NCBI GenBank assembly: GCA_029265085.1 | Contig: JAJUJY010000018.1 | Span: 1 to 44,310 of the forward strand | DNA length: 44,310 bases | Direction: 5' to 3' | From: Chloroflexota bacterium | GTDB lineage: Bacteria; Chloroflexota; Anaerolineae; Anaerolineales; Anaerolineaceae | In this document: positions 28,483 to 34,658 of the stretch, piece by piece | How positions within the stretch are numbered: the stretch's first letter is position 1 | Layout: each line of letters opens with the position of its first letter | Made by a program: the position numbers and the translations under genes | Notes under the pieces: model-generated | The model's database searches: none | Seen by the model: only the letters and a program-made list of their open reading frames with translations | Told to the model about the DNA's origin: nothing

Positions 28483-28522
28483 GCAAAAACAGGGCTGGCA
28501 GAAATTATCCGCCAGCCCTGTT
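28483..28522 (-). terminator. Terminator ending the heme-copper-oxidase-like operon
   Basis: AACAGGGCTGGC (28488-28499) pairs perfectly with GCCAGCCCTGTT (28511-28522) around an 11-nt loop. The minus strand reads into a T-run after the stem, which makes it the terminator of the minus-strand operon; it may also stop plus-strand transcripts. Confidence 0.87.
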
Positions 28523-28538
28523 GATTTAATCGGTCACA

Positions 28539-29225
28539 CTAGTGCACCCGCAAAAGCAGCTGCTTCACTTGCGCCCAAGGCAGGCGCGGCTTCCAGCCCA
28601 GCAGCCGCACACCGCCTGCCAGCAGCATACCTGCCCCAACAACCAGCAAGGGAATTAGCAATACATTGACCGTGTTCTCCCCGGCAATGATATGGGTCGG
28701 CGCACCCCACAATGGAGTGGAAATCGTCAGCAGCCCGCAAGTGAACAGCGCCGCCCCGCCCGCGGGAGTCTGGCCTTTGCCTGCGCCGCGCGCACCAAAA
28801 ACCTTTTCGCGAGTCCCTGGCAAACCCAAGAGCAGCAGCACGGCCAGCGTCAGCAGCGTCAGGTACAGGCGCACGTTATTTGGCGCGGTACTGCCGCGCA
28901 GTGTGGCCGAGAAATAATACTGCACCGCCGAGGCTGTCCCGCCCACCAGCAAGAAGATCAGGCTGTAGCGGTAGCCTTTGGCCTTGCCGCGCCCCAGCCA
29001 GACCGCGCTGAACACACCGAATAAGGCCGCAGCAATCGAGATCACCACCAGCACCTGAAAAATTGGTTTGACCGGAATCAGCGGAGCCATGCGTTCACCG
29101 AATTTCTCGGCGTTGAATGCCACACAGGTTGTCCCAATCCCGCCCAACAGGGTAAAAGCCGCCGTCAGTGATAACATGACCAACGCAGCCACCCGCAGCA
29201 CCTTGAACCAAACGTTTGATTTCAC
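28539..29225 (-). CDS. Membrane protein of unknown function, last gene of the oxidase-like operon
   Basis: A 228-residue protein with about six predicted helices (near 8-30, 52-77, 85-105, 117-137, 158-175 and 185-208) and no recognised domain. A GTG at 29223-29225 with GGAGG 8 nt upstream is the preferred start. It begins 18 nt after the CtaB gene and ends in the operon terminator. Co-transcription with the heme O synthase and the oxidase-like protein suggests a role in assembly or as an accessory subunit, which is inference. Confidence 0.7.
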   Translation of the reverse strand: MKSNVWFKVLRVAALVMLSLTAAFTLLGGIGTTCVAFNAEKFGERMAPLIPVKPIFQVLVVISIAAALFGVFSAVWLGRGKAKGYRYSLIFLLVGGTASAVQYYFSATLRGSTAPNNVRLYLTLLTLAVLLLLGLPGTREKVFGARGAGKGQTPAGGAALFTCGLLTISTPLWGAPTHIIAGENTVNVLLIPLLVVGAGMLLAGGVRLLGWKPRLPWAQVKQLLLRVH

Positions 29226-29243
29226 AGCCAATTCCTCCGCGGC

Positions 29244-30140
29244 TCACAGGCCGCCGTAAATAATGAATAACATCGCCAGGAGCATATAAATGGAAGCTCC
29301 TTTATAAAGTGCAAAATTTAACCATCGGGATGGGCGCAGCAGACCGGCAAGCACCAGCCCCACCAGCGCCGCACCGCACACCGCCAACAGTCCTTGCAGC
29401 CCGCGCGAAAGCCCGATCAGCGCTGCCGTCCAGGCCATCACCGCCACTGCCAGCAGCGTAGAAAGCGCAATAATCCAGCGGGTGGCGCGCACCCCCAGCC
29501 AACCCGGAAAGGTCGGCACGCCTGCGCGGGCATAGTCGGCCTGGTATTTGATCGTGAAGGTCATAATGTGAGTTGGAATCCAGAGCAGCACCCCCAACGC
29601 CAGCAGCAGCCCAATCCCATCCAGGCTGCCGGCAGCCAGCGTGCGCCCGGCCAGCGCGGGCATCCCGCCGGACAGCCCGCCGAGCAAGATCGAGAAGGGT
29701 GTGCGCCGTTTTAACCAGACGGTGTACACCACGCCGTCCAAAAAAGCCCCGGCTGCCACCACCCCGGCATACAGCGGATCGATGACCAGCGACCAGGCCA
29801 GCCCGGCAGCCAGCATCAGACCGCCCAACACCCAGGCTTCCTGCGGTGCAATCCGGCCTGAGGGCAGCGGGCGGTGCTTTGTGCGCGCCATACGAGCATC
29901 GATATCGCGGTCGTAGGCCATATTCAGCACCGTTGTGCCGCCCACCGCCAGGAAGAGCGAGCCAAACAGCGCCAGCACCGATCCGGAGGTAAAGCTGGTG
30001 CAGCAGCCGCTGGCATAGCCAGCCAGCGCGGTGGTCAGCAGCAGGCCGGTCTGCAAATCTTTAATCAAAGCCCAATATGCGCGCAGGCGTTCCCAAACCC
30101 TTGCATGGGATTTTGCTGCCGAAATACTGGCCGTGCTCAT
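29244..30140 (-). CDS. ctaB: Protoheme IX farnesyltransferase-like UbiA prenyltransferase
   Basis: A 298-residue polytopic UbiA-superfamily enzyme. The first Asp-rich motif is NMAYDRDIDARMARTKHRPLP, and the second region is VVYTVWLKRRTPFSILLGGLSGGMPALAG, both close to CtaB/CyoE. THIMTFTIKYQADYARAGVPTFP corresponds to the CtaB block with DYxxAGVPMLP. CtaB converts heme b to heme O by farnesylation for heme-copper oxidases. The ATG overlaps the stop of the preceding gene in ATGA, and GGAG lies 8 nt upstream. It supports a heme-related function for this operon. Confidence 0.88.
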   Translation of the reverse strand: MSTASISAAKSHARVWERLRAYWALIKDLQTGLLLTTALAGYASGCCTSFTSGSVLALFGSLFLAVGGTTVLNMAYDRDIDARMARTKHRPLPSGRIAPQEAWVLGGLMLAAGLAWSLVIDPLYAGVVAAGAFLDGVVYTVWLKRRTPFSILLGGLSGGMPALAGRTLAAGSLDGIGLLLALGVLLWIPTHIMTFTIKYQADYARAGVPTFPGWLGVRATRWIIALSTLLAVAVMAWTAALIGLSRGLQGLLAVCGAALVGLVLAGLLRPSRWLNFALYKGASIYMLLAMLFIIYGGL

Positions 30141-31057
30141 TGGGAAGCTCCCTGAACCGCCGCATCCCGCGCACAACGGAAACCGATGTTCGGGCTGGTG
30201 TATTCCGGCTGGACGTTGTTGCGCGTCCAGAGCCGCAGATTATAGGCATAGTCGGCTTTGCTGCCGCCGCGCAGATAGCGGTAATGCACGCCCTCGTAGT
30301 CGTCCGCCACCCACTGCCAGACGTTGCCGGCCATATCATACAGCCCGTAAGGACTGGCCGCATCCAGCGTCTGGTAACCGTCATAGGTTTTTCCGTTAAA
30401 AAAACCAACCGGAGTGGTATCGCCGCCCTTGCCCATCACCTTTTCAAAAATATCGCGGCTGGAATAGTAATTGGCCTGGTTGCGCTCAATCGAATCGCCC
30501 CAGGGATAAGCGCGCTGGTCTGTGCCGCGGGCTGCTTTTTCCCATTCCAGTTCGGTTGGCAGCCGCCCGCCAACCGATGCGCAGTATGCGTTGGCCCCAA
30601 ACCAGGTCACCATCGTCACCGGGTGATTCTCGTATCCGGGCATCACGCTGAAGGACTGGCCGTCATAAACCAACCGGCTGCCTGCCGCATTGACCGGCAG
30701 GTGCAGCCAGTCGCCCGCTTCGATCTTTTCCTCGTGCTTTTTGCCCTGGAACGGATCGCCGCCGTAATAGCCCATGATCTGGCTGTCCACCAGTTTGACT
30801 GTTCCATCTGCAATAGCCCGGTTGAGATAATCAGCGTATTGCTGGTTGGTCACCAGCGTGACCATCATCTCGTACGCCTGGGCAATCATCTCCTCCTCAG
30901 CGTGCCGCCCGTAATAAAACTCCCCGGCCGGGATCAAAGCCCAGCTTTGCGGGTCCACACCGGTATCAATCACCGCGGTCTGCTCCGGCAGTTTAGGCGC
31001 AGAACAGGCCGAACACAGCAGCATCAAACCACACAGCAGCAACAATGCGCGCTTCAT
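30137..31057 (-). CDS. FGE-sulfatase-domain lipoprotein lacking the catalytic cysteines (NirV-like)
   Basis: A 306-residue lipoprotein with signal MKRALLLLCGLMLLCSAC (Cys18). The rest is an FGE-sulfatase/SUMF1 fold: WALIPAGEFYYGR, NHPVTMVTWFGANAYCASVGGRLPTELEWEKAARG, YPWGDS, GLYDMAGNVWQWVADDY, RYLRGGS and IGFRCAR. In formylglycine-generating enzymes two cysteines follow GGS; here that segment reads GGSKADYAYNLRLWTRNN, with none. The protein is therefore not expected to make formylglycine. NirV, found beside nirK in denitrifiers, is a relative with this fold. It overlaps its operon partners by 4 nt at both ends. Confidence 0.85.
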   Translation of the reverse strand: MKRALLLLCGLMLLCSACSAPKLPEQTAVIDTGVDPQSWALIPAGEFYYGRHAEEEMIAQAYEMMVTLVTNQQYADYLNRAIADGTVKLVDSQIMGYYGGDPFQGKKHEEKIEAGDWLHLPVNAAGSRLVYDGQSFSVMPGYENHPVTMVTWFGANAYCASVGGRLPTELEWEKAARGTDQRAYPWGDSIERNQANYYSSRDIFEKVMGKGGDTTPVGFFNGKTYDGYQTLDAASPYGLYDMAGNVWQWVADDYEGVHYRYLRGGSKADYAYNLRLWTRNNVQPEYTSPNIGFRCARDAAVQGASQ

Positions 31058-32541
31058 TTCTTCACCTCCGGCAGGGTGTTCAGGTCGGCCTGTTTGAGTT
31101 CCTTTTTCCAGCGCCCGCCCCGTGAGAACAGGTCCGCCAGCCGCCAGGCCATCAAAATACCCAGCAAGAGCAGCACCGAAGCCAGCCCAACATCGGCCAG
31201 TAAAATTGCGATATCAACCAGCGGCTGCTGGCCAATTTCATCCACAAACAGGCGCTTGGTCTCAAAGACCGCCACCGCCCCAAAAGCCAGGTCCGAACCG
31301 AGGATAATGATCCAGCCAAACCACTGCCGCGCGCGCCCCTTCAACCCGGACAGGTCGGCATAATAGAGCAAAATGATCGTGGCGATAATTCCAGCCAGCA
31401 CATGCCAGTGGCCGGTCAGCGCCACCCGTTCTTCACGGGCCGGCCAGGTACGGATGATCTCATCCAGCATAATGGCCATGAAGATACCCACCGCCGTGAC
31501 CACAAAATTCATGTACACCATCTGCCACAGCGCGCCAAACTTGAGCGGATCGTGCAGCAGCGCGCCCAGCCACTGGAAGAAGTTGGCCTTGACCACCTTC
31601 GTCTCCGCCAGCCGCTGCCGGGCAGACTTGCGCCAGCCAAAAATAACCAGCAGCAGCGAGGCCACCAGCACCGGGAACGAGCCAACATTGATGATGATGT
31701 GCGCCACCGGCTCAAACGGCACCACCGCCCAAACGCCCGCGGTGATAATAATGGTGCCGATGATCATCAACGGCATAGCCCACTGGTGCAGCTTGCCCTT
31801 GAAGCCCATCCAACGGCCAACAATCAAGGTCAGCGCCACAGCGATCAGGGTCAGCATGATGTGCAGGTGGCCGATGATAGCCAGCTCCAGCGGCGTTTTG
31901 TGCGCTTCGCGGATAATGTCTTCGGCCAAAAAGGACTGGAACCCGTTGCCAAACATCGAACCTGCCACCGCGCCAAACAGCGCCGACCCCAGCGTAGCCA
32001 GCGCCATCACAAACAGCGCCACCCGCTCCAGGTCCACCCCGCTGCGCGTGCGCGCCATCTGCGGGTCGGTGGTGTGATATTCCTTGCGCCAGGGCCAGAG
32101 CGCCGCGGTCAGCAGTACCCCGGCCAGAAAGACCAGCACCTGCCCGGAAATAAACAACCCGTGAAAGACGTAGTTGTGCCCAAAATAGGCAAACCACAGC
32201 CCAAAAATCAGCGAAAGGATGTAGCCCGCCGTGATCAGGCCGTTAATGCGCACCTGATCCTCTTTCTTGAAGCGCCACAAAGCCGTGATCAGGTAGGTCT
32301 CAATTGCCACCACCGCCATCGCAATGCTGTGGTAGAGGATGATGATGCGCCCCTCGCGCTCGGCAGGCAGCATGCTTAACCCCAGATTATTGATCATCCA
32401 GGACTTGATCCCGAATTCCTCCATCGGACCGGAAAGCATGCCAAAAAAGACCGTCACCAGCGAGATCAGCGCAATAGCCACCAGCACCAATCCGCGCGTG
32501 GAACGGAACAGAAACTCAAAGCGGTCTTTGATCCAATTCAT
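31054..32541 (-). CDS. 12-helix heme-copper-oxidase-like membrane protein (divergent)
   Basis: A 495-residue protein with 12 predicted helices, the number of a heme-copper oxidase subunit I. Histidines sit where that superfamily binds heme: His71 in helix 2 (LYHSIAM), His225/His227 in helix 6 (IIGHLHIML), and His378/His380 in helix 10 (TGHWHVLAG), the last like the H-x-H of oxidases and NO reductases. The His-His pair of helix 7 is missing; only His252 and His281 border that region. It could be a quinol- or NO-reacting enzyme with an altered binuclear site, or a heme protein without oxidase activity. The start has GGGAG 6 nt upstream. Confidence 0.6.
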   Translation of the reverse strand: MNWIKDRFEFLFRSTRGLVLVAIALISLVTVFFGMLSGPMEEFGIKSWMINNLGLSMLPAEREGRIIILYHSIAMAVVAIETYLITALWRFKKEDQVRINGLITAGYILSLIFGLWFAYFGHNYVFHGLFISGQVLVFLAGVLLTAALWPWRKEYHTTDPQMARTRSGVDLERVALFVMALATLGSALFGAVAGSMFGNGFQSFLAEDIIREAHKTPLELAIIGHLHIMLTLIAVALTLIVGRWMGFKGKLHQWAMPLMIIGTIIITAGVWAVVPFEPVAHIIINVGSFPVLVASLLLVIFGWRKSARQRLAETKVVKANFFQWLGALLHDPLKFGALWQMVYMNFVVTAVGIFMAIMLDEIIRTWPAREERVALTGHWHVLAGIIATIILLYYADLSGLKGRARQWFGWIIILGSDLAFGAVAVFETKRLFVDEIGQQPLVDIAILLADVGLASVLLLLGILMAWRLADLFSRGGRWKKELKQADLNTLPEVKK

Positions 32542-32560
32542 ATAACGCTCCCAGGCAGGT

Positions 32561-32580
32561 TTTGTACAATTTAGCACAAA
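32561..32580. promoter_or_regulatory. Crp/Fnr-like palindrome before the oxidase-like operon
   Basis: TTTGT-N10-ACAAA spans 20 bp, with further symmetric positions inside the spacer, and ends 19 nt upstream of the operon's ATG. A one-base variant is retained in the duplicated copy at 33898-33917. A Crp/Fnr-family regulator gene is the natural candidate to bind it. Confidence 0.5.
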
Positions 32581-32622
32581 CCCGTCGCAGAAGCATTGAC
32601 TTTTGTTATGCGGAGCGCGGGC

Positions 32623-32741
32623 TTACTTCTCTTTGCCCGCCGGGCTGATCTCAGCCACATGCGCCAATTGCTCCGGCTTCAACACCTGGATAGCGCGCTC
32701 TTCCGTTTGAATCCACTGATTGCAGCGAAAGGCTTTGAGCG
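32623..32741 (-). pseudogene. 3' fragment of the Crp/Fnr regulator gene
   Basis: This is the duplicated end of the regulator at 33960-34658. The reading frame and stop are intact (ends HVAEISPAGKEK, where the full gene has HVAEISPAVKEK), but there is no start; upstream the sequence changes abruptly to the inserted DNA. It cannot encode the sensor domain. Confidence 0.85.
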
Positions 32742-32820
32742 GACAGCTGGAAACAAACGATTTGATTTGAAAAATCCAATCCATGACCCAAACTTAAGAT
32801 GGGTGAACGCTATCTTTTGC

Positions 32821-32856
32821 TATGATATATCTATCTCACAGAGAACCTTCGGTTCA
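32821..32856 (+). promoter_or_regulatory. Extended -10 promoter and UUCG leader hairpin of the MBL-fold gene
   Basis: TGCTATGAT gives an extended -10 (TATGAT at 32821-32826) without a good -35. In the leader, GAACC-TTC-GGTTC (32844-32856) forms a short stem closed by a stable UUCG-type tetraloop. The SD GGAG is 6 nt before the ATG at 32880. Confidence 0.45.
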
Positions 32857-32879
32857 AAAAAACGCGTATCGGAGCAGAC

Positions 32880-33728
32880 ATGAAAATCAAGAAGAAAACT
32901 TTTTACCTAATTCTATTCGCCGCAATCGTTGTGATCTTCGGAACGTATTATTACGTTACTGAAAAAACAGGCATTGTCAGCTTACCGGAGAATATTACCG
33001 CCATTGACCATGATGGGCTTTATTCATCCTATCTTGTAAAGATACCAGACGGGTATTTGCTTTTCGATACGGGGTACGATCGAGATTTTTCTTACTTCCT
33101 GTCGTTTATCCAGCAGAATGGCATCAAACCATCTGAAATAAAGTATTTGTTTATCTCCCACGGGCATGACGATCATTCCGGCTATATTGCAAAGATTTTA
33201 GAAATCCAACCCGATTTGCAGCTGATCGTCCATCAAAAAACCGCTGACCGCCTGGCCACAGGCATAAATAATAAAGATAATGGCGGCGGGCTGGTAAATC
33301 CATTCATTTATGCGGTATTTCGGATAAAACAAGCGCTTGACCCAAACTGGACGCTCAGCTTTCCCGCTTATCAAATTCGCGACAGGGATATTGTCCTGGA
33401 AAGGGAAACTGCGGATCTTTCCAGCCTTCTGGGCATCGAATCAAGCGTTATTTACACCCCTGGACACACTTCAGATTCTTATTCGCTCATGATCGGTGAA
33501 GACACCATTCTTGTCGGTGATGCGGCCTCTTATTTTGCCAATTGGGCGGGTACCTGCCACTTAACCATTTTCAATGAAAACGTGGACCAGGTATACACCT
33601 CCTGGGAAAAAATTCTTTCCATGAACATCAATCAAATCGCTCCTTCGCATGGAAAACCATTCATTGCCGAAAAATTACGCAACTGCCTGCACAAATACAA
33701 GCAATCGGACTTAGTTCCCTTTTTCTAG
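32880..33728 (+). CDS. Membrane-anchored metallo-beta-lactamase-fold hydrolase
   Basis: A 282-residue protein with an N-terminal helix (residues 8-26, after a lysine cluster) that should anchor an extracytoplasmic domain. The MBL metal motif is HGHDDH at 94-99, followed by His in YTPGHTSDS, the bridging Asp in LVGDAAS and the last His in APSHGKPF, so both metal sites are complete. The substrate is unknown; lactonases and many other hydrolases share the fold. It is lower in G+C than its neighbours, lies on the opposite strand, and is the only gene of an insert bracketed by a direct repeat, which points to acquisition. Confidence 0.9.
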   Translation: MKIKKKTFYLILFAAIVVIFGTYYYVTEKTGIVSLPENITAIDHDGLYSSYLVKIPDGYLLFDTGYDRDFSYFLSFIQQNGIKPSEIKYLFISHGHDDHSGYIAKILEIQPDLQLIVHQKTADRLATGINNKDNGGGLVNPFIYAVFRIKQALDPNWTLSFPAYQIRDRDIVLERETADLSSLLGIESSVIYTPGHTSDSYSLMIGEDTILVGDAASYFANWAGTCHLTIFNENVDQVYTSWEKILSMNINQIAPSHGKPFIAEKLRNCLHKYKQSDLVPFF

Positions 33729-33878
33729 AACCGGATTCACCGCGTAGAAATTCATCAGCGTTGATGCCTTGCAAAAGCGCTGATGAATTTTCATACTGCT
33801 AGACACGTTCCATGCTGCAAAGCGAGCTCCGCGCGTGGAACGGAACAGAAACTCAAAGCGGTCTTTGATCCAATTCAT
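33711..33878 (-). pseudogene. 5' fragment of the oxidase-like gene
   Basis: The first 17 codons (MNWIKDRFEFLFRSTRG) are identical to the start of the gene at 31054-32541, with the same ribosome site. The frame then runs into inserted DNA and stops after 55 codons, so only a truncated peptide could be made. It is the right-hand partial copy created by the duplication. Confidence 0.85.
33748..33790 (+). terminator. Terminator-like hairpin after the MBL-fold gene
   Basis: AAATTCATCAGCG (33748-33760) pairs perfectly with CGCTGATGAATTT (33778-33790) around 17 nt, 19 nt after the stop codon, with a short T-rich end. It lies near the right border of the insert, so it might also be an element end. 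Confidence 0.6.
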
Positions 33879-34078
33879 ATAACGCTCCCAGGCAGGTTTT
33901 GTACAATTCAGCACAAACCCGCCGCAGAAGCATTGATTTTTGTTATGCGGAGCGCGGGCTTACTTCTCTTTCACAGCCGGGCTGATCTCAGCCACATGCG
34001 CCAATTGCTCCGGCTTCAACACCTGGATGGTGCGCTCTTCCGTTTGAATCCACTGATTGCAGCGAAAAGCCTTGAGCG
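33828..34078. repeat. Right copy of the 251-bp direct repeat
   Basis: Direct repeat partner of 32491-32741. The unique sequence between the copies is 1086 bp and contains only the MBL-fold gene. The right copy is continuous with the full Crp/Fnr gene, the left copy with the full oxidase-like gene. Confidence 0.95.
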
Positions 34079-34658
34079 AGCGGCTGAACGCTTCCGGAAC
34101 GGTTGAAATCTGCGCGGCCAACTGGTGGTTGGGGTGGCGCCGCCGGTCAATCGGCTTTTGCCCGTTCGCAGAAAGCTCCAACAGCAGCTTGGCTGCCCGC
34201 GCCAAGACCGGCCGGAAAGACAAATCCTGAAAATGACCAATCAGGCGGCGGTTGCGCGCAGCCATCACCCGCAGCATACCCAGCGCCACCCGCGGATGTT
34301 TCAACAACAGCTCTTCCAGATGCTCCGGTGCAAGGTTCCAGACCAGGCTGTCTTCCAGCGCAATGGCCGTGGCCGGGCTGGGGCCGCCGTCCAGCGCAGA
34401 GACTTCATTAAACATAATCACCGGCTCGAAGATGGCCAGGATCGAGATCTGCCCCTGCGGGCTGAGCTTGCATAACTGCACCCGCCCGCCCAACAGCACA
34501 TACAACCCGCTGGTTGGCTCCTCTTCAAAAAAGAGGATTTCCCCGGCGGTAAAACGGCGGATTTGCCCGGCAGCAATAATTAGTTTAATTGCCTCGGGAG
34601 TAATCCCCTTGAAATGTTCCACATTGCCAAGCTGTTGTGCCAGTAGGTTGAGATCCAT
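33960..34658 (-). CDS. Crp/Fnr-family transcriptional regulator
   Basis: A 232-residue regulator. Residues about 15-130 form a cyclic-nucleotide-binding-like beta roll (GEILFFEEEPTSGLYVLLGGRVQLCKLSPQGQ, then NEVSALDGGPSPATAIALE). A dimerisation helix and a C-terminal winged helix follow, with HQLAAQISTVPEAFSRSLKAF as the likely HTH. There is no cysteine cluster for an FNR-type iron-sulfur cluster and the cAMP pocket motif is not conserved, so a Dnr-like sensor is possible. It faces the same way as the oxidase-like operon, and before the insertion it lay directly upstream of it. Confidence 0.9.
   Translation of the reverse strand: MDLNLLAQQLGNVEHFKGITPEAIKLIIAAGQIRRFTAGEILFFEEEPTSGLYVLLGGRVQLCKLSPQGQISILAIFEPVIMFNEVSALDGGPSPATAIALEDSLVWNLAPEHLEELLLKHPRVALGMLRVMAARNRRLIGHFQDLSFRPVLARAAKLLLELSANGQKPIDRRRHPNHQLAAQISTVPEAFSRSLKAFRCNQWIQTEERTIQVLKPEQLAHVAEISPAVKEK

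What the first reader, a model, noticed from the sequence alone, without database searches (positions are those of the whole stretch)
28539..32541. Coupled operon of a heme-copper-oxidase-like protein with an altered metal site, a cysteine-less FGE-fold lipoprotein, CtaB and a membrane protein
Seen: four minus-strand genes with 4-nt overlaps (first three) and an 18-nt gap, one terminator, and a 12-helix protein with His in helices 2, 6 and 10 (including H-W-H in helix 10) but no His-His pair in helix 7. Known: CtaB makes heme O for heme-copper oxidases; FGE-fold NirV accompanies nirK; Crp/Fnr (Dnr) proteins control NO metabolism. Inference: this is a compact redox module, perhaps for NO or O2 handling, with a noncanonical binuclear centre. 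It does not match a standard oxidase or NorB operon, since no CoxB/NorC-type subunit is present.
Basis: partly seen in the sequence, partly recalled or inferred. Interest (0 to 1): 0.78.

Follow-up and report, generated by a model that had tools for sequence, protein, structure and literature searches.

The report
Unrecognised oxidase-fold heme protein and operon
A large bacterial membrane-protein family that databases leave unnamed is predicted to share the fold of respiratory oxygen and nitric-oxide enzymes but to have a different metal site, and its neighbours suggest it handles nitric oxide or oxygen.

The parts
31054..32541 (-). HCOL: 495-aa, 12-helix heme-copper-oxidase-fold membrane protein with no named family
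30137..31057 (-). FGE-fold (PF03781) lipoprotein without the catalytic Cys pair; conserved partner of HCOL
29244..30140 (-). CtaB-like heme O synthase (UbiA superfamily), Asp motifs conserved
28539..29231 (-). MP4: conserved membrane protein without a family match; invariant C36 and H180
28488..28522 (-). probable intrinsic terminator closing the operon
33960..34658 (-). Crp/Fnr-family regulator belonging to the module
32596..32609 (-). degenerate copy (ATAACAAAAGTCAA, 2 mismatches) of the TTGAC-N4-GTCAA palindrome, 68 nt upstream of HCOL
32500..32749 (.). direct repeat copy A: remnant of Crp 3' end, spacer and HCOL start
33837..34086 (.). direct repeat copy B: intact Crp 3' end, spacer and a truncated HCOL start (ATG at 33878)

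Best explanation
HCOL is a deeply diverged, heme-binding protein with the fold of heme-copper oxidase subunit I. Inferred wiring: His71 (helix II) and His380 (helix X) hold a low-spin heme; His378 (helix X) holds a high-spin heme, probably heme O made by the operon's own CtaB. Opposite it, one non-heme metal (Cu or Fe) is held by His225 and the single His281, with Met229 and/or His227 completing the site, in place of the three-His CuB/FeB. Most likely the module consumes nitric oxide (reduction to N2O) that arises during nitrite reduction. It is switched on by the adjacent Crp/Fnr regulator. The FGE-fold lipoprotein is an accessory on the outer membrane face (assembly, or a docking site for a donor). 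Shown: predicted-fold match, invariant residues, synteny, a CtaB that is the only strong one in some genomes, promoter palindrome in relatives, genome-level NrfA/NirK bias. Inferred: heme binding and type, metal, substrate, product, electron donor, regulator-site pairing.
Against: Heme O is known from O2 reductases, while cNOR and qNOR use heme b (recalled). No cytochrome c or CuA subunit is in the window's operon. The Glu of NO reductases (helix VI, His+4; recalled) is Met here. The NrfA association may be inflated by shared ancestry, which was not corrected for, and 17 of 40 HCOL genomes lack strong NrfA. The hybrid cluster protein, another NO marker, shows no association (25 of 40 versus 20 of 40, p 0.37). 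11 of 15 subfamily-2 loci lack the Asp-variant HCO and 9 of 15 the hemerythrin gene. The palindrome is also reported as an Anr box (PMC4974557, passages), and the window's own copy has two mismatches. Foldseek gave no hit at E up to 0.001 (best 3.5e-3), and profile-profile sequence comparison with heme-copper oxidases found nothing.
Confidence: 0.5

Rival explanations
1. HCOL is an O2 reductase or O2 scavenger: a heme-O oxidase with a modified CuB site that protects anaerobic or microaerobic hosts.
For: In six genomes without a COX1 match the only strong CtaB is next to HCOL, and heme O is a hallmark of O2 reductases (recalled). The promoter palindrome also fits an Anr-type box. One subfamily-2 locus has a flavodiiron protein, a family that can also reduce O2 (recalled).
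Against: The helix-VI Tyr of A- and B-type oxidases and the three-His CuB are absent. HCOL presence is significantly biased towards NrfA, not towards cytochrome bd or COX1. No CuA subunit in the window operon.
Confidence: 0.2
2. HCOL has lost catalysis and is a membrane heme protein for sensing, electron transfer or quinol oxidation, or a helper subunit of another enzyme such as the neighbouring Asp-variant HCO in subfamily 2.
For: Altered metal site. Two HCO-fold genes lie in one cluster in 4 of 15 subfamily-2 loci. Multiheme cytochromes lie beside HCOL in six subfamily-1 loci.
Against: H225, H227, M229 and H281 are invariant or nearly so across two subfamilies that share 34-41% identity, which is hard to explain if no metal is bound. 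Subfamily 1 usually has its own CtaB, and eight HCOL genomes have no COX1 match.
Confidence: 0.25
3. An ordinary terminal oxidase or NorB operon that annotation missed.
For: Heme-copper oxidase fold and CtaB next door.
Against: No PF00115 match for any of 40 members; no NCBIfam match for the window protein; no PDB sequence match; no CoxB or NorC in the operon; canonical ligands missing.
Confidence: 0.03

Closest known systems
C-family heme-copper oxidases (cbb3 CcoN) and cNOR NorB
   Different: about 10% identity; no PF00115 match; one His instead of the helix-VII pair; Met instead of Tyr/Glu in helix VI; no CcoO/CcoP or NorC genes in the window operon
NOR families of the HCO superfamily beyond cNOR/qNOR (eNOR, sNOR, gNOR, nNOR)
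   Same: NO-reducing or proposed NO-reducing HCO members related to B-family oxidases (PMC11388526, passages); eNOR reported in Chloroflexi (PMC8756737, passages). An HCO with Asp in place of the helix-VI His, resembling gNOR (ligand pattern recalled), neighbours HCOL subfamily 2
   Different: the Asp-variant HCO of L083 carries PF00115 and a helix-VII His-His pair; HCOL has neither. That eNOR, sNOR, gNOR and nNOR have both is recalled
NnrS (PF05940), a heme-copper membrane protein of NO regulons
   Same: heme-copper membrane protein in NO regulons (PMC1274295, passages); 12 helices recalled
   Different: no PF05940 match in HCOL and none over the cut-off in 39 HCOL genomes (one sub-threshold match)
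NirV and other FGE-fold partners of redox enzymes
   Same: an FGE-fold gene beside a redox-enzyme gene (NirV recalled)
   Different: here a lipoprotein beside an HCO-fold gene and CtaB; no catalytic Cys pair

Membership tests
Heme-copper oxidoreductase superfamily | 12-helix subunit-I fold | tested here: met
Heme-copper oxidoreductase superfamily | recognisable sequence (PF00115 or NCBIfam oxidase models) | tested here: not met
   profile-profile also negative
Heme-copper oxidoreductase superfamily | heme ligands: helix II His and helix X His-x-His | tested here: met
   by sequence and position only; geometry not measured
Heme-copper oxidoreductase superfamily | three-His CuB/FeB site (helix VI His plus helix VII His-His) | tested here: not met
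   single H281 in 240 of 240; next residue never His
Heme-copper oxidoreductase superfamily | bound hemes and metal | not testable with these tools
   needs purified protein
cNOR/qNOR nitric oxide reductases | helix VI Glu four residues after the metal His (recalled) | tested here: not met
   Met229 in 239 of 240, Thr in one, taking H225 as the metal His
Heme-copper O2 reductases (A and B) | cross-linked helix VI Tyr (recalled) | tested here: not met
   helix VI His+4 is Met; the C-type Tyr in helix VII was not mapped
Heme O synthase CtaB/CyoE | NCBIfam TIGR01473 equivalog cut-off | tested here: inconclusive
   189.3 bits against 210.3; linked copies in some other genomes exceed it, e.g. G021 229.1; Asp motifs conserved
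Formylglycine-generating enzyme | FGE fold domain PF03781 | tested here: met
   146.7 bits
Formylglycine-generating enzyme | catalytic Cys pair | tested here: not met
   conserved Cys are only C18, C159 and C295; motif recalled
NnrS | PF05940 match | tested here: not met

The most novel reading that the evidence does not exclude
HCOL is a new class of NO-consuming enzyme on the heme-copper oxidase fold: a heme-O protein whose second metal is held by two or three His and a Met from helices VI and VII rather than by the three-His site of known families. It would serve nitrite-ammonifying Chloroflexota and relatives.
Probability: 0.33. Interest if true: 0.88.

Novelty: new variant of a known kind. 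Interest (0 to 1): 0.7.

Why it matters
Heme-copper oxidases and NO reductases are among the best-studied membrane enzymes, and nearly all known families share a three-His metal site and a recognisable sequence (recalled). A large unnamed family (3,237 hits) with the same predicted fold but no sequence signal and a changed site would widen the superfamily. It would test how much of the binuclear centre is needed for NO or O2 chemistry. If it handles NO, it would add a step to nitrogen cycling in Anaerolineae that gene surveys based on present models would miss.

Tried and rejected
Standard oxidase or NorB operon: rejected. NnrS: no match over the cut-off. Profile-profile comparison of HCOL with A-, B- and C-type HCO alignments from the same genomes: no signal; these profiles were small, so this does not prove absence of homology. 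PDB searches by HCOL sequence and by two profiles: nothing. Plasmid search: nothing. MP4 model (pLDDT 87.5) has no convincing PDB match. MP4, MP5 and HCOL are not detectably related; MP4 against X275 gave a weak signal (E 0.0034, 9% probability). HCP as NO marker: no association. Literature: the listings of the ten searches showed no title or abstract start describing this family; passages were read in four papers. Most subscription papers are not held, nor is the NOR-diversity paper whose DOI I recalled. The FESNov catalogue paper (PMC10849945, listing only) may contain the family as an unnamed cluster; not checked.

Limits: model coordinates are not exposed, so whether the histidines face each other could not be measured. 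For the association test the positives were the 40 best-scoring of 44 subfamily-1 genomes (above 700 bits), because the tool takes 80 handles; the negatives were 40 handles chosen by hand at rough intervals of handle number among the 330 genomes without a match, without looking at content. Five families were tested; ancestry and genome completeness were not corrected for. L014 and L018 were left out of alignment A1 because of internal stops; L020 was also left out there, without a reason. The palindrome TTGAC-N4-GTCAA was picked after trying six patterns. In notebook entry 3 I wrote a 42-nt Crp-HCOL gap; the sequence gives 81 nt.

Full report
What is there. The window (no whole genome held) carries on the minus strand four closely packed genes: HCOL (32541-31054), an FGE-fold lipoprotein (31057-30137), CtaB (30140-29244) and a membrane protein, MP4 (29231-28539), closed by a strong hairpin (28522-28488). 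FGE (PF03781) and CtaB (UbiA) have family matches; HCOL has only a chance-level one and MP4 none. By record title, relatives are mostly Anaerolineae and other Chloroflexota, with a few MAGs labelled Bacillota (L017, L022-L024) and Calditrichia (L011).

The operon once began with the Crp/Fnr gene. A 250-bp direct repeat (32500-32749 and 33837-34086, 95% identical) holds the end of the Crp gene, a spacer and the start of HCOL. Downstream of the intact Crp gene (34658-33960) lies a truncated HCOL start (ATG at 33878; 17 residues identical, then divergent). So Crp and HCOL were adjacent (81 nt apart) before about 1.1 kb carrying a metallo-beta-lactamase-fold gene (32880-33728) came between. In other genomes a Crp gene lies within 6 kb of HCOL in 21 of 38 loci, mostly upstream on the same strand.

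The metal site. A second search from a divergent member found subfamily 2 (367 proteins at E up to 0.001 among 7,999 candidates); the subfamilies share 34-41% identity. In 240 homologues (the 120 listed by each search) H127, H225, H227, H281, H378 and H380 are present in 240 of 240, H71 in 239 (one gap) and M229 in 239 (one Thr). In a cbb3 oxidase of a related genome the corresponding His are at 60, 202, 252/253 and 340/342; in HCOL they are at 71, 225, 281 and 378/380. The residue after H281 is never His: Ile 75, Met 13, Thr 13, Val 12, other 7 in subfamily 1; Lys 101, Arg 18, Leu 1 in subfamily 2. Helix VI reads H-L-H-x-M; the position four after the first His, Tyr in A- and B-type O2 reductases and Glu in NO reductases (recalled), is Met. 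That His225, His281 and Met229/His227 bind one metal opposite the His378 heme is inferred; distances could not be measured.

The module. Among 38 subfamily-1 loci from 37 genomes (28 from the contig scan, 10), FGE is within 6 kb of HCOL in 37, CtaB in 35, MP4 in 23, a second membrane family MP5 in 22 and Crp in 21. Two of the three loci without CtaB end just after FGE. HCOL was found in 13 of 301 genomes of the phylum (two of them subfamily 2), in 66 of 396 of one class (both subfamilies and fragments included) and in 4 of 299 of another phylum, one by a fragment. FGE keeps Cys18 (lipobox), Cys159 and Cys295 but not the catalytic Cys pair (motif recalled); its best PDB match is sulfatase modifying factor 2. 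CtaB keeps its Asp motifs but scores below the heme O synthase cut-off (189.3 against 210.3 bits). Of 39 HCOL genomes (37 with subfamily 1, two with subfamily 2), 8 have no PF00115 match at E up to 0.001 (7 of 27, 1 of 12). In six of those eight (G003, G004, G013, G014, G021, G099) the only CtaB match above 100 bits is the one next to HCOL; G011 and G012 have a second one elsewhere. So CtaB most likely serves HCOL. These genomes are MAGs or unnamed and may be incomplete.

Regulation. Within 250 bp upstream of HCOL, TTGAC-N4-GTCAA occurs with at most one mismatch in 11 of 38 sequences (0.37 expected from dinucleotide shuffles) and perfectly in 5 of 38 (0.0 expected); upstream of FGE (36), CtaB (30) and Crp (16) it never occurs at that level. 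The window's copy, ATAACAAAAGTCAA at -68, has two mismatches and is weak taken alone. The motif was chosen among six patterns, so the count is somewhat optimistic. A comparative study predicts TTGACnnnnGTCAA as the HcpR site before hcp and norB in two cyanobacteria (PMC1274295, passages seen); another paper gives it as an Anr box (PMC4974557, passages).

Substrate. In 40 subfamily-1 genomes of the class, strong NrfA matches (E below 1e-40) occur in 23; in 40 genomes of the same class without HCOL, in 4 (Fisher p 1.1e-5; 16 of 27 versus 4 of 40 if genomes first met in the contig scan are left out). At the Pfam cut-off it is 26 versus 8 (p 9e-5) and at E up to 0.001 33 versus 15 (p 8e-5). NirK: 13 versus 4 (p 0.027). 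CydA 21 versus 14 (p 0.18), COX1 34 versus 28 (p 0.18), HCP 25 versus 20 (p 0.37). In two genomes NrfA, with a 4-heme NrfH-like gene, lies within 10 kb of HCOL. In six loci (L008, L013, L015, L019, L020, L159) a pair of multiheme cytochromes adjoins the operon. Subfamily 2 sits in other company: of 15 loci, four have a PF00115-like HCO with Asp in place of the helix-VI His where read (L083, L146; L147 partial), three of these with a cupredoxin-like gene; six have a DUF438-hemerythrin-PAS gene, one an adjacent flavodiiron protein, four a CtaB; four (L139-L142) have none of these. Together these favour NO over O2, without proving it. Heme O and the Anr reading of the palindrome point the other way.

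Verdict. Its interpretation is supported as to fold and conserved association, and remains untested as to redox function. By the rule that a tested and unmet defining feature bars membership, HCOL is not filed as a canonical heme-copper oxidase or NO reductase; it is an HCO-fold protein that probably works like one.

Noticed in passing
window 32500-34086: A 95%-identical 250-bp direct repeat flanks an inserted segment with a metallo-beta-lactamase-fold gene; the insertion split the Crp-HCOL pair and left a truncated HCOL start.
   Followed up: yes
L082, L083, L144, L146, L147: Subfamily-2 HCOL near a cupredoxin-like gene and an HCO (Asp for the helix-VI His in L083 and L146) in L083, L144, L146, the HCO alone (partial) in L147; a DUF438-hemerythrin-PAS gene in L082, L083, L144, L147; a flavodiiron protein in L082.
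   Followed up: partly
L008, L013, L015, L019, L020, L159: Paired multiheme cytochromes beside the HCOL operon; the six proteins printed carry a CXXCK motif as well as CXXCH.
   Followed up: partly
L074 11331-11945 and 7173-7775 (minus): MP5: an unnamed membrane family of about 200 residues, often on one or both sides of HCOL-FGE-CtaB, with one invariant His (H125).
   Followed up: partly
L014, L018, L028: HCOL copies interrupted by a stop or split between frames; may be pseudogenes or assembly errors. Left as found.
   Followed up: no
G008:C172:32818-33348, G020:C186:53160-53498: Very weak PF00115 matches (27-28 bits) inside long open frames, possibly further divergent oxidase relatives.
   Followed up: no
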